This document shows, piece by piece, positions 41,679 to 45,122 of a DNA stretch of 64,000 nucleotides (positions are counted from its first letter, which is position 1; every line of letters starts with the position of its first letter). The position numbers were made by a program, and so were the translations under genes. Location: positions 4,708,501 to 4,772,500 of the forward strand of contig NZ_CP111079.1 in the NCBI RefSeq assembly GCF_026278245.1. The letters are read 5' to 3'. The notes beneath the pieces were generated by a model. That model searched no databases. It saw nothing but the letters and a program-made list of their open reading frames with translations, and had not been told where the DNA came from. The stretch comes from Pontibacter kalidii. GTDB lineage: Bacteria; Bacteroidota; Bacteroidia; Cytophagales; Hymenobacteraceae.

Positions 41679-43256
41679 ATGAAGCAAACCATAGACGCAG
41701 CACCACTGGTAAAGGAGATTTCCGACGTACTGCACCAACTGGGCATTAAAGAAGTGAACCCGGCCTATAGCACCGGCCTTTCGTGGGGCGGCCACGAAGG
41801 GCGTACTACCCGCACCATCAACTCACCGGCAGACGGCAACACCATTGCCACCGTGAACATGGCTACCGCCGAAGATTACGACAAGGTGGTGGTGCAGGCC
41901 GAGGAAGCTTTTAAAGTATGGCGCAAGGTGCCCGCCCCGAAGCGCGGCGAGGTAGTGCGCCAGATCGGCGATAAGCTGCGCCAGCACAAAGAAGCACTGG
42001 GTAAGCTGGTGAGCTACGAAATGGGCAAAATATACCAGGAAGGCCTGGGCGAGGTGCAGGAGATGATCGACATCTGCGACTTTGCCGTTGGCCTCTCACG
42101 CCAGCTGCACGGCTACACGATGCACTCGGAGCGACCGCAGCACCGCATGTACGAGCAGTACCACCCGCTGGGCATCGTGGGTGTGATCTCAGCTTTCAAC
42201 TTCCCGGTGGCGGTTTGGAGCTGGAACGCGATGCTGGCTGCCGTTTGCGGCGATGTGGTGATCTGGAAGCCATCAGAGAAAACGCCGCTGACGGGCGTGG
42301 CCTGCCAGCATATCATCAAGGAGGTACTGGCTGAGAACGAGCTGCCGGAGGGAATCTTTAACCTGATCATCGGCGATGCCGAGATCGGCAGCCTGATGAG
42401 CCACGACAAGCGCGTGCCGTTGGTATCGGCTACGGGCTCTACACGCATGGGCAAGAAGGTAGGCGAGGCCGTTGGTGCCCGTCTGGGTAAATCCCTGCTG
42501 GAGCTGGGCGGTAACAACGCCATTATACTTACCGAGAGTGCTGACATGGAAATGGCCCTGCGCGCTATCGTGTTCGGTGCCGTGGGTACCTGCGGACAAC
42601 GCTGTACCTCCACCCGTCGCCTCATCATTCATGAGAACATCTACGAGCAGGTAAAAGAGCGCTTGCTGAAAGTATACCCGAATCTGCCTATCGGTCATCC
42701 GCTGGACAGCACGACGCTGGTGGGCCCACTTATCGACAAAGATGCCGTTGACGCTTTTACCAGTGCGCTGGAGAAGGTGCAGCAGGAGGGAGGCACCCTG
42801 CTGACGGGTGGCGACATCCTGAGCGGCGAAGGCTATGAAACCGGCACCTATGTGAAACCAGCCATCGTGGAGGCCGAAAACCACTATGAGATGGTGCAGG
42901 AAGAGACATTTGCCCCGATCTTATACCTGATCAAGTATAGCGGCGATGTGGAGAATGCCATTGAGTTGCAGAACGGCGTGCGCCAGGGCCTGTCCTCGGC
43001 TATCTTCTCTACTAACCTGCTCGAGACCGAGGCCTTCCTGGGCCACTGGGGTTCTGACTGCGGCATTGCCAACGTGAACATCGGTACATCGGGTGCCGAG
43101 ATCGGCGGTGCCTTTGGTGGCGAGAAAGACACAGGTGGTGGCCGTGAGTCGGGTTCCGATGCCTGGAGAATATACATGCGCCGCCAGACCAATACCATCA
43201 ACTACAGCCGTGAGCTGCCGCTCGCACAAGGCATCCGGTTCGACATCATGGACTAA
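41679..43256 (+). CDS. ALDH7-type aldehyde dehydrogenase (aminoadipate-semialdehyde dehydrogenase-like)
   Basis: This NAD-dependent dehydrogenase has 525 aa. It has the NAD-binding stretch GVISAFNFPVAVWSWN, WKPSEKTPLT, ATGSTRMGK, the general base E275 (LLELGGNNAI) and the nucleophile C309 (GQRCTSTRRL). ELGGNNA and QRCTSTRRL are hallmarks of ALDH7A1/AmaB, which oxidises alpha-aminoadipate semialdehyde in lysine breakdown. The substrate is inferred from family similarity; no lysine-degradation genes are nearby. Confidence 0.87.
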   Translation: MKQTIDAAPLVKEISDVLHQLGIKEVNPAYSTGLSWGGHEGRTTRTINSPADGNTIATVNMATAEDYDKVVVQAEEAFKVWRKVPAPKRGEVVRQIGDKLRQHKEALGKLVSYEMGKIYQEGLGEVQEMIDICDFAVGLSRQLHGYTMHSERPQHRMYEQYHPLGIVGVISAFNFPVAVWSWNAMLAAVCGDVVIWKPSEKTPLTGVACQHIIKEVLAENELPEGIFNLIIGDAEIGSLMSHDKRVPLVSATGSTRMGKKVGEAVGARLGKSLLELGGNNAIILTESADMEMALRAIVFGAVGTCGQRCTSTRRLIIHENIYEQVKERLLKVYPNLPIGHPLDSTTLVGPLIDKDAVDAFTSALEKVQQEGGTLLTGGDILSGEGYETGTYVKPAIVEAENHYEMVQEETFAPILYLIKYSGDVENAIELQNGVRQGLSSAIFSTNLLETEAFLGHWGSDCGIANVNIGTSGAEIGGAFGGEKDTGGGRESGSDAWRIYMRRQTNTINYSRELPLAQGIRFDIMD

Positions 43257-43344: not shown

Positions 43345-43869
43345 ATGCACGCCTGTGGATAAGGTAAGTTTGTGTCAGCGGCAGGGGATTCTATACAACT
43401 CCTACCCATTTATACTTCTGTAATCTCACTTGTTTTACACAAATTTCCCGGAATTGCTTCTTGTCATGCTATGTTTACCCATACTTATACTTTATAGCGC
43501 TCTCCTCTAGAAAGGTGTGAACCTTACTTATCCACAATTGTGGACAAGCCGCCTGTGGATATGTGGATAACCTGTGCCTATACTTGCCTAGAGGCAGTTG
43601 GGAGAGCTTCCTAAGAAGCAACCTTTTCCTATGTTATCGCACCTTTTAAAGTATAACATGAAGAAGATGAAGATGATAAGGCGTTTTAGCTTTTCCACAC
43701 AGGGCTGTGGATAATGTGGATAAAGAAGCCTAACGAAAAAAATCTGAAAATATTTGTAACCTATATGCAACTTCGGATAGATAAGCATGTCTTTAGGGCA
43801 GAGATTAGGAAAGGCGGATGGGAAGACACTAAGGTGAGTGAGTGCGATTAACCGGTTAAGCATTAAACT
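43345..43869. other. Intergenic DnaA-box cluster, candidate replication origin or DnaA-binding locus
   Basis: Nine-mers matching TTATCCACA (either strand): perfect at 43354-43362 (-), 43528-43536 (+), 43562-43570 (-), 43706-43714 (-) and 43715-43723 (-); one mismatch at 43539-43547 (-), 43554-43562 (-) and 43691-43699 (+). The last two perfect boxes are adjacent. An A/T-rich stretch (43735-43768) follows, as an unwinding element would. Eight boxes in 370 bp far exceeds chance. No gene is visible in the spacer. Confidence 0.72.
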
Positions 43870-44427
43870 TTGGAAAAAATTGGCTACCAGGATGTGAACC
43901 AGCAGGTGGTGCAGCGCTGCAAAAGCGGTGAACACCGGGCGCAGTATGAACTGTACAAACTCTACTCCAAAGCTATGTTTAACGTGAGCATGCGCATCAC
44001 CAACGATTACGCCGAGGCCGAGGATGTGCTGCAGGAGGCTTTTCTGAGTGCCTTCAGGAACATGCACCACTATAAGGGCGAGGCGAGCTTCGGCAGTTGG
44101 CTGAAGAAGATCGTGATCAACGCGGCCATCAACGCGGTGCGCAAACGTCGCTCGGAACTGGTGCCGATGGATGACCGCACCGTGGCCGAGGTGCCGGATG
44201 AGGTAACGGAGGACGACTCGGAGTGGCAGGTGGAGCAGGTGCGGCGTGCCATCCAGAAGCTACCCGATGGTTATCGGGTGGTGCTGAGTTTATACTTGCT
44301 GGAGGGATACGACCATGCTGAGATAGGCGAGGTGCTGGGCATCTCGGAGTCTACCTCTAAATCGCAGTACAGCAGGGCACGCAAAAAGCTATTGGAGATA
44401 ATGAAGGAGCCGCAGTTTATGGCATAA
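43870..44427 (+). CDS. ECF-type RNA polymerase sigma factor
   Basis: A 185-aa sigma-70 family protein with only regions 2 and 4. Region 2 has ELYKLYSKAMFNVSMRITNDYAEAEDVLQEAFLSAF; region 4 has LPDGYRVVLSLYLLEGYDHAEIGEVLGISESTSKSQYSRARKKL. The most upstream start is TTG 43870 (MEKIGYQDVN); a GTG at 43894 is an alternative. It heads an operon with an anti-sigma-like membrane protein and a secreted protein, and lies just after the DnaA-box cluster. Confidence 0.92.
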   Translation: MEKIGYQDVNQQVVQRCKSGEHRAQYELYKLYSKAMFNVSMRITNDYAEAEDVLQEAFLSAFRNMHHYKGEASFGSWLKKIVINAAINAVRKRRSELVPMDDRTVAEVPDEVTEDDSEWQVEQVRRAIQKLPDGYRVVLSLYLLEGYDHAEIGEVLGISESTSKSQYSRARKKLLEIMKEPQFMA

Positions 44428-44468: not shown

Positions 44469-45122
44469 ATGAAAGATAGATTAGAAAAGTTTGTACAGAA
44501 TAACCGGGAGGAGTTCGACGTGTTCGAGCCTCGGCCGGAACTGTGGCAGCACATATGCCAGGAGCTGCCCCAAAAATCACCCGAAAAAGAGACCAAAGTT
44601 ATTAAGTTCAACTTTGGCGAGCGCGCCAGCTTCAGTGCAGATTTCTTCTTTATGCGCGTGGCGGCGGCCATTGTATTGCTGCTGGGTTGCGGCCTCACCA
44701 TCTTCCTGATGAAGCAGCAGACCCCTGATACCGCCAACACGTTGGCATCCACACAAAGTATAAATGCCCCTGCTTCTGACGTAAGCACTATTGCGCCGGA
44801 GCTACCAGAAATCGAGGCCTACTATGCCAGCCAGATAGAAGCCAAGAAATCGGAGCTGAGCGAGTATGACCTGAAAGTGCTGGGCCTGGACGAGCAGCAG
44901 GTGATAGACCAAGAACTGGCCCGCCTCGACAGCAGCTATGTCTCCCTCAAAAACCAACTCTATACTTCTCCCAATACCAATGAGATAGTAGGTGCCCTGA
45001 TCCAGAACCTGCAGATACGGATCAAGGTGCTGAATCGTCAGCTGGAAGTACTCCAGAAACTGGAGCCAAACAAACAACAACCTATTCAAGAACCACAAAA
45101 CGATGATACCACAAATGTATAA
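44469..45122 (+). CDS. Single-pass membrane protein, probable anti-sigma factor
   Basis: A 217-aa protein of no recognised family. The cytoplasmic N-terminus (about 1-65) begins KDRLEKFVQNNREEFDVFEP and contains a WQHI segment, typical of Bacteroidetes anti-sigma-like proteins. One membrane helix follows (about 62-80, RVAAAIVLLLGCGLTIFLM), then an extracytoplasmic part with a coiled-coil tail (about 120-205). Position after the sigma gene supports an anti-sigma role, but no zinc-binding HxxxCxxC is seen. Confidence 0.68.
   Translation: MKDRLEKFVQNNREEFDVFEPRPELWQHICQELPQKSPEKETKVIKFNFGERASFSADFFFMRVAAAIVLLLGCGLTIFLMKQQTPDTANTLASTQSINAPASDVSTIAPELPEIEAYYASQIEAKKSELSEYDLKVLGLDEQQVIDQELARLDSSYVSLKNQLYTSPNTNEIVGALIQNLQIRIKVLNRQLEVLQKLEPNKQQPIQEPQNDDTTNV

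What the first reader, a model, noticed from the sequence alone, without database searches (positions are those of the whole stretch)
43354..43723. Dense cluster of DnaA boxes: candidate oriC or DnaA-titration locus
Five perfect TTATCCACA boxes and three with one mismatch lie in 370 bp, two of them directly adjacent, followed by an A/T-rich stretch at 43735-43768. By chance one would expect about half a perfect box in the whole 64 kb. No dnaA gene is nearby. The main evidence against an origin is gene direction: the large ribosomal cluster (left) and rplM-tsf (right) both point toward this site, so they would be replicated head-on. It could instead be a datA- or DARS-like DnaA reservoir, or regulate the sigma-factor gene at 43870.
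Basis: partly seen in the sequence, partly recalled or inferred. Interest (0 to 1): 0.85.

Follow-up and report, generated by a model that had tools for sequence, protein, structure and literature searches.

The report
DnaA-box array upstream of sigma gene
The cluster of DnaA boxes is real but is very probably not the replication origin: it is a precisely spaced, conserved array in front of a sigma-factor gene in some Pontibacter species, which suggests that the replication starter protein DnaA controls that gene or is held there.

Summary
Observation confirmed: five perfect and three one-mismatch TTATCCACA boxes at 43354-43723, the densest perfect-box cluster in the genome. It is very probably not the origin. 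GC skew switches near 4.22-4.23 Mb, about 0.52 Mb away; a region 8-17 kb from that switch, near mnmG, has weak boxes and an AT-rich stretch and matches in 24 of 24 other Pontibacter genomes. The cluster precedes an ECF sigma gene found in 50 of 50 same-genus genomes; its module A is in 18 of 50. Box columns are better conserved than the rest (0.85 vs 0.48; 0 of 569 shifts). Module A to module B is 162-165 bp in 17 of 18 genomes, module B to a conserved ECF-promoter-like element 74-76 bp in 18 of 18. Best reading: a clade-specific DnaA-binding control region of the sigma operon, which would also hold DnaA. A datA/DARS-like role is not excluded, but DARS spacing is not met and the 0.5-Mb distance from oriC is shared by an array-less genome. 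DnaA binding and regulation are untested.

The parts
43354..43362 (-). Distal DnaA box (TTATCCACA); position and sequence vary between species
   Evidence: column identity 0.67
43528..43570 (.). Module A: + box 43528, - boxes 43539, 43554, 43562 (head-to-head, 2 bp between the first two)
   Evidence: (up to 3 mismatches): 18 of 50 same-genus genomes, 0 of 100 genomes of other genera drawn from the family
43571..43690 (.). Spacer between the modules: sequence poorly kept (10-base blocks 0.30-0.64), length kept (A start to B start 162-165 bp in 17 of 18)
43691..43723 (.). Module B: + box 43691, - boxes 43706 and 43715 (topology of a DARS core, spacing 15 and 9)
43735..43768 (.). A/T-rich stretch between module B and the promoter-like element
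   Evidence: 10-base blocks 0.58-0.72 identity
43766..43795 (+). ECF-promoter-like element TGCAAC-N17-GTCTTTA of the sigma gene (function inferred)
   Evidence: (30 of 30 loci, with or without array)
43870..44427 (+). ECF sigma-70 factor gene (185 aa)
44469..45122 (+). Probable anti-sigma factor gene (position; very weak family match)
   Evidence: NF052375, E 0.00037, 20.6 bits against a cut-off of 100; no Pfam match
41679..43256 (+). Aldehyde dehydrogenase gene (L-piperidine-6-carboxylate dehydrogenase), upstream neighbour in 30 of 30 loci

Best explanation
The array is a DnaA-binding control region of the ECF sigma/anti-sigma operon, present in one part of the genus Pontibacter. DnaA would bind module A (four boxes) and module B (three boxes) cooperatively; the two modules sit at a fixed distance on the DNA and could form one complex. 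Module B ends 43 bp before a conserved ECF-promoter-like element, so the complex would modulate RNA polymerase there without covering it, tying the sigma factor to DnaA level or nucleotide state and so to the replication cycle. While it does so it also holds several DnaA molecules. Shown: the boxes, their conservation, the fixed spacings, the promoter-like element, the distribution in the genus, and that the skew switch lies elsewhere. Inferred: DnaA binding, co-operation of the modules, the direction of regulation, that the element is a promoter, and that the sigma factor uses it.
For: Box columns average 0.850 identity against 0.477 elsewhere in the intergenic region (18 genomes; 0 of 569 shifts of the mask reach it). 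A-to-B distance is 162-165 bp in 17 of 18 genomes although the spacer sequence is poorly kept, and B-to-element distance is 74-76 bp in 18 of 18 (module B was taken as the best fit within a 30-bp range; positions of boxes found without that template agree in 15 loci). By contrast, the element's distance to the sigma start varies 98-115 bp in the 16 array-bearing loci and the whole gap to the upstream gene 582-717 bp. Module A lies before the same sigma gene in 18 of 18 genomes that have it (places). Two other box groups in this genome that I looked at also stand before genes, nrdB and mraZ; further pairs of perfect boxes were not looked at. DnaA here has an intact DNA-binding domain with GGRDHSTVIHS. 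Precedent: DnaA represses the sigma gene rpoH and controls nrdAB in E. coli (PMC8203912, passages).
Against: The sigma gene and its promoter-like element are kept in 14 of 14 examined loci that have no array, so the array is not needed for the operon. No binding or expression data exist. G040 has 354 bp between the modules and a module B with 8 of 27 mismatches. The promoter search pattern was made after seeing the alignments and had no shuffled control upstream of the gene; the strict pattern is not enriched in the genome (2 matches, 3 for the reversed control). So promoter and autoregulation rest on position and conservation only. Seven to eight boxes are more than a simple operator needs.
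Confidence: 0.52

Rival explanations
1. The array is mainly a non-origin DnaA-handling locus like datA, DARS or the B. subtilis DnaA-box clusters: it titrates DnaA or changes its nucleotide state, and its place before the sigma gene is secondary.
For: Densest perfect-box cluster in the genome. Strong boxes here, weak ones at the putative oriC. Both modules begin head-to-head, and module B has the order + - - of DARS1 and DARS2. Fixed spacing between modules. It lies 501-552 kb from the putative oriC, on the same side, in five genomes; E. coli datA is about 467 kb from oriC (own arithmetic, coordinates from two record versions). Genomes with the array have more perfect boxes per Mb (10.5 vs 8.0; the array's own boxes not subtracted).
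Against: DARS cores read + 14 - 12 -; module B reads + 15 - 9 -. The sigma gene lies 537 kb from oriC in array-less G110, so the distance can follow from gene order. Module A not found in 32 of 50 same-genus genomes. The fixed spacing to the promoter-like element is not explained. The box-density difference is confounded by kinship.
Confidence: 0.27
2. Another DNA-binding protein, not DnaA, reads the repeated TGTGGA-type sites in this array.
For: No binding experiment exists. The closest tandem boxes here are 0 or -1 bp apart, whereas E. coli DnaA prefers 2 or 3 bp (PMC11317965, passages).
Against: Several sites equal the exact DnaA consensus, in an organism whose DnaA has the usual DNA-binding domain. 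No candidate regulator was looked for.
Confidence: 0.13
3. It is a chromosomal origin, main or secondary.
For: Many strong boxes next to an A/T-rich stretch.
Against: Skew switch elsewhere; at the array the skew falls from positive to about zero, the wrong way for an origin; another conserved origin-like region by mnmG; module A not found in 32 of 50 genomes.
Confidence: 0.03
4. Chance cluster or decaying relic without function.
For: Module A not found in 32 of 50 genomes; decayed in G040.
Against: Conserved boxes and spacings; random placement does not give such density.
Confidence: 0.02

Closest known systems
DnaA-bound or DnaA-regulated promoters (E. coli nrdAB, rpoH, polA, purH; B. subtilis sda)
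   Same: DnaA boxes beside a promoter; rpoH shows that a sigma-factor gene can be a DnaA target (PMC8203912; PMC11317965; PMC4447404; passages)
   Different: Here seven boxes in two rigidly spaced modules before an ECF-promoter-like element; binding and regulation untested
E. coli DARS1/DARS2
   Same: Head-to-head + - - core of three boxes with fixed spacing, intergenic
   Different: Spacing 15 and 9 instead of 14 and 12; IHF and Fis sites not tested; found in only part of one genus
E. coli datA
   Same: Cluster of about five boxes roughly one tenth of the chromosome from oriC
   Different: Box order and spacing differ; the distance here can be explained by gene order; IHF site not tested
B. 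subtilis DnaA-box clusters outside oriC
   Same: Dense box clusters away from the origin, several beside genes (passages)
   Different: Different phylum; gene context not compared; effect on initiation here untested. The review itself says that clusters with a significant role were not identified in B. subtilis, although deleting six gave early initiation

Membership tests
bacterial chromosomal origin (oriC) | Lies at the GC-skew minimum | tested here: not met
   Sign change at about 4.22-4.23 Mb; array at 4.752 Mb
bacterial chromosomal origin (oriC) | Kept throughout close relatives | tested here: not met
   Module A in 18 of 50 same-genus genomes; the rival region matches in 24 of 24 relatives, weakest match 44 bases
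bacterial chromosomal origin (oriC) | Replication starts there | not testable with these tools
   needs read depth or marker frequency
DARS | Core of three boxes, box I opposite to II and III | tested here: met
   Module B + - -; E. coli cores + - - (text; boxes located by me)
DARS | Core spacing as in DARS1 and DARS2 (14 and 12) | tested here: not met
   15 and 9
DARS | Promotes ADP release from DnaA | not testable with these tools
   needs biochemistry
datA | DnaA boxes plus an IHF site at set spacing | not tested
   No search for an IHF or HU site was made; the box layout differs from datA
datA | Conserved relative distance from oriC | tested here: inconclusive
   501-552 kb in five genomes with the array, but 537 kb for the sigma gene in array-less G110 and 719 kb on the other side in G002
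B. subtilis-type DnaA-box cluster | Several DnaA boxes close together outside the origin | tested here: met
B. subtilis-type DnaA-box cluster | Joint deletion gives early initiation | not testable with these tools
   needs mutants
DnaA-regulated promoter | Boxes at fixed place near a promoter | tested here: met
   74-76 bp in 18 of 18; that the element is a promoter is inferred
DnaA-regulated promoter | DnaA occupies the site and expression depends on it | not testable with these tools
   needs ChIP-seq and reporter assays

The most novel reading that the evidence does not exclude
A two-module DnaA nucleoprotein switch in Bacteroidota (I know of none there, by recall and the listed searches) that either resets DnaA, as a DARS/datA analogue with its own spacing rule, or couples replication directly to an ECF sigma factor. 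It would be gained or lost as a unit within one genus, so that close relatives with and without it give a natural experiment.
Probability: 0.3. Interest if true: 0.72.

Novelty: new variant of a known kind. Interest (0 to 1): 0.52.

Why it matters
DnaA handling outside the origin is, as far as I recall, known mainly from E. coli and B. subtilis. The one search that paired Pontibacter with oriC and DnaA found no paper. Four others named Bacteroidetes, Bacteroidota or Bacteroides among their terms; judged by titles and abstract starts, none of the papers listed is about such a locus: 20 of 56,459 (where 'datA' also matched the word 'data'), 12 of 12, 8 of 8, 10 of 15. A conserved, rigidly spaced DnaA array in front of an ECF sigma gene, present in some species and missing from others in the same gene slot, would let one ask directly what a non-origin DnaA cluster does. 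The work also gives a likely oriC for the genus, half a megabase from the cluster and about 0.74 Mb from dnaA.

Tried and rejected
Origin at the array: rejected on skew, conservation and a better candidate. Origin at dnaA: dnaA starts at C1:1 within a stretch of positive skew, and no box with up to one mismatch lies in the 1.5 kb before it or in the first 400 bases. Conserved distance from oriC as proof of a datA-like role: weakened, because the sigma gene sits 537 kb from oriC in array-less G110. The mraZ site also keeps its side and rough distance (1.46-1.81 Mb) in four genomes (own arithmetic), so gene order is broadly kept. DARS membership: spacing not met. Structured RNA: two weak matches only, 23.4 and 22.2 bits against a gathering score of 55. 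Sigma-70-type promoters: 2 found, shuffles 1.1 with sd 1.2. Box counting took loci on the minus strand the wrong way round and was replaced. Alignment A1 held one locus (L034) the wrong way round; it was used only for a first look. Single gain of the array: on a tree of 32 sigma regions, 17 of 18 array genomes group together (93/82) and G119 falls elsewhere on weak support (86/31), so one gain with losses and two gains are both possible. Box density against array presence is not corrected for kinship, used rounded genome sizes and included the array's own boxes. The skew of G001, G002, G040 and G110 was not sampled. The region upstream of the sigma gene was read in 32 of 50 genomes (30 loci, two); the other 18 were judged only by the module A pattern with up to 3 mismatches, which could miss a diverged array.

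Full report
WHAT IS THERE. Five perfect TTATCCACA boxes and three with one mismatch lie at 43354-43723. They fall into a distal box (43354), module A (43528+, 43539-, 43554-, 43562-) and module B (43691+, 43706-, 43715-). The window is C1:4708501-4772500 of a 5.05-Mb genome with 61 perfect boxes; nowhere else do more than three stand close together. With random placement of 61 boxes, 7 of 20,000 trials gave three or more within 370 bp.

NOT THE ORIGIN. C1 is taken as circular. Sampled GC skew is positive from about 4.23 Mb through the contig end to about 1.56 Mb and negative over the rest. Exceptions are short stretches on the terminus side (1.59, 1.70, 1.92 Mb) and the two 8-kb pieces right of the array, which are about zero (-0.001, -0.003). 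Contiguous sequence from 4.00 to 4.27 Mb puts the minimum at 4.22-4.23 Mb, about 0.52 Mb left of the array. In relatives G021 and G020 the sign changes between 1.395 and 1.65 Mb and between 3.52 and 4.25 Mb (the two G020 samples between are +0.011 and -0.017), while their arrays lie at 2.01 and 4.53 Mb. A weighted scan of 1.25 Mb of sampled sequence, with a box matrix recalled from E. coli, ranks the array first (48.0), a site before nrdB second (35.5) and C1:4236905-4237250 third (25.0); the mraZ site was not in that sample. The third site lies 8-17 kb right of the skew minimum, holds twelve weak box-like sites, is 3.2 kb from mnmG/gidA, and is followed by 60 bp of 80% A+T. It matches in 24 of 24 other Pontibacter genomes (E up to 0.001; some matches short, the weakest 44 bases) and in 0 of 14 genomes of other families. 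Ten of its twelve box-like sites, tested over 8 genomes, average 0.858 identity against 0.694 elsewhere. I take it as the likely oriC. dnaA lies elsewhere, at C1:1.

THE ARRAY IS CONSERVED AND RIGID. The downstream ECF sigma gene is in 50 of 50 same-genus genomes (E up to 1e-60). Module A, with up to 3 mismatches, is found once each in 18 of 50, and in 0 of 100 genomes of other genera drawn from the family. Of 30 sigma loci examined, 15 have 6-9 boxes (up to one mismatch) within 600 bp upstream, one (G040) has 3, and 14 have none; the downstream control averages 0.08 per 600 bp. The upstream aldehyde dehydrogenase gene is the same in 30 of 30; the gap is 582-717 bp in the 16 loci with an array and 276-663 bp in the 14 without, 11 of these at most 426 bp. 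In 18 aligned array regions box columns average 0.850 identity and the rest 0.477; no circular shift of the box mask (0 of 569) reaches this. Module A start to module B start is 162-165 bp in 17 of 18 (354 in G040, where module B has 8 of 27 mismatches), although the spacer is poorly conserved.

THE PROMOTER-LIKE ELEMENT. GCAAC(C/T)-N-GTCT, like an ECF promoter (consensus recalled), stands before the sigma gene in 30 of 30 loci, 16 with and 14 without the array; the pattern was made after seeing the alignments and no shuffled control was run. Module B start to this element is 74-76 bp in 18 of 18, while the element's distance to the sigma start is 98-115 bp in the 16 array loci and 102-131 bp in the 14 others. 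So modules and element form one spaced unit. The strict pattern occurs twice in the genome (three times reversed), so a regulon cannot be read from it.

HOW IT MAY WORK. DnaA has the usual domains and HTH motif. I propose that DnaA binds both modules, which cooperate, and modulates the promoter that begins 43 bp after the last box. The direction is unknown; the boxes do not overlap the element, which argues against simple blocking. E. coli DnaA controls nrdAB and represses the sigma gene rpoH (PMC8203912, passages). In this genome nrdB and mraZ also have box groups.

RIVALS. A DnaA reservoir is not excluded. Both modules start head-to-head, a feature named for DARS cores (PMC5742627), and E. 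coli DARS1 and DARS2 both read + 14 - 12 - where I located them. Module B reads + 15 - 9 -, and the closest tandem boxes here are 0 or -1 bp apart, where E. coli DnaA prefers 2 or 3 bp (PMC11317965, passages). The array lies 515, 501, 503, 552 and 518 kb from the putative oriC in G000, G021, G020, G001 and G040 (own arithmetic). E. coli keeps datA and DARS at set relative distances (PMC4585315, PMC5010248, passages). But array-less G110 has its sigma gene at 537 kb, and G002 at 719 kb on the other side, so gene order alone can explain the distance. Genomes with the array have more perfect boxes per Mb (10.52 vs 8.04 mean, 18 vs 32 genomes, p 8e-6; control pattern 5.68 vs 6.47, p 0.15). This is not corrected for kinship, and the array's own boxes are included.

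HISTORY. On a tree of the sigma region (32 rows), 17 of 18 array genomes group together and G119 falls apart on weak support.

NOVELTY. DnaA-box clusters and DnaA-controlled promoters are known kinds; this layout, with an ECF-promoter-like element, was not met in the titles, abstract starts and passages seen. I rate it a new variant of a known kind. All steps that involve protein binding or regulation are inference.

Noticed in passing
G000:C1:4236900-4237320 (L097:16900-17320): Likely oriC of the genus: weak DnaA-like boxes, AT-rich stretch, near mnmG and the GC-skew switch; matches in 24 of 24 same-genus relatives.
   Followed up: yes
L092:14348-14726 (C1:4134348-4134726): About ten DnaA-like boxes in front of nrdB (ribonucleotide reductase small chain), as in E. 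coli nrdAB.
   Followed up: partly
L022:1501-1547 (C1:2522876-2522922): Three perfect DnaA boxes (-, +29, +38) in front of mraZ and rsmH; the same spacing is listed in eight same-genus genomes, also array-less G110 and G002. The gene was identified only in the own genome.
   Followed up: partly
G020:C1:4387004, G001:C1:4429705, G021:C1:1862888, G110:C1:1173516: A pair of perfect boxes (- then +, 15 bp apart) recurs in four genomes; neighbouring gene not looked at.
   Followed up: no
G000:C1:4253445 and 4254402; G001, G021, G110 likewise: Two perfect boxes 957 bp apart, 14-20 kb from the putative oriC, recur in four genomes.
   Followed up: no
50 same-genus genomes: Genomes with the array have more perfect DnaA boxes per Mb than those without (10.5 vs 8.0); control pattern not clearly different; kinship not corrected, array boxes included.
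   Followed up: partly
L342:1501-1530 (C1:858343-858372): The only other exact copy of the strict promoter pattern, 48 bp before an ORF whose start looks like a signal peptide; possible target of the sigma factor.
   Followed up: no
window 43850-43859: AACCGGTTAA palindrome just before the sigma gene, seen in 9 of 16 array loci and 0 of 14 others in the 140 bases printed; possible further regulator site.
   Followed up: no
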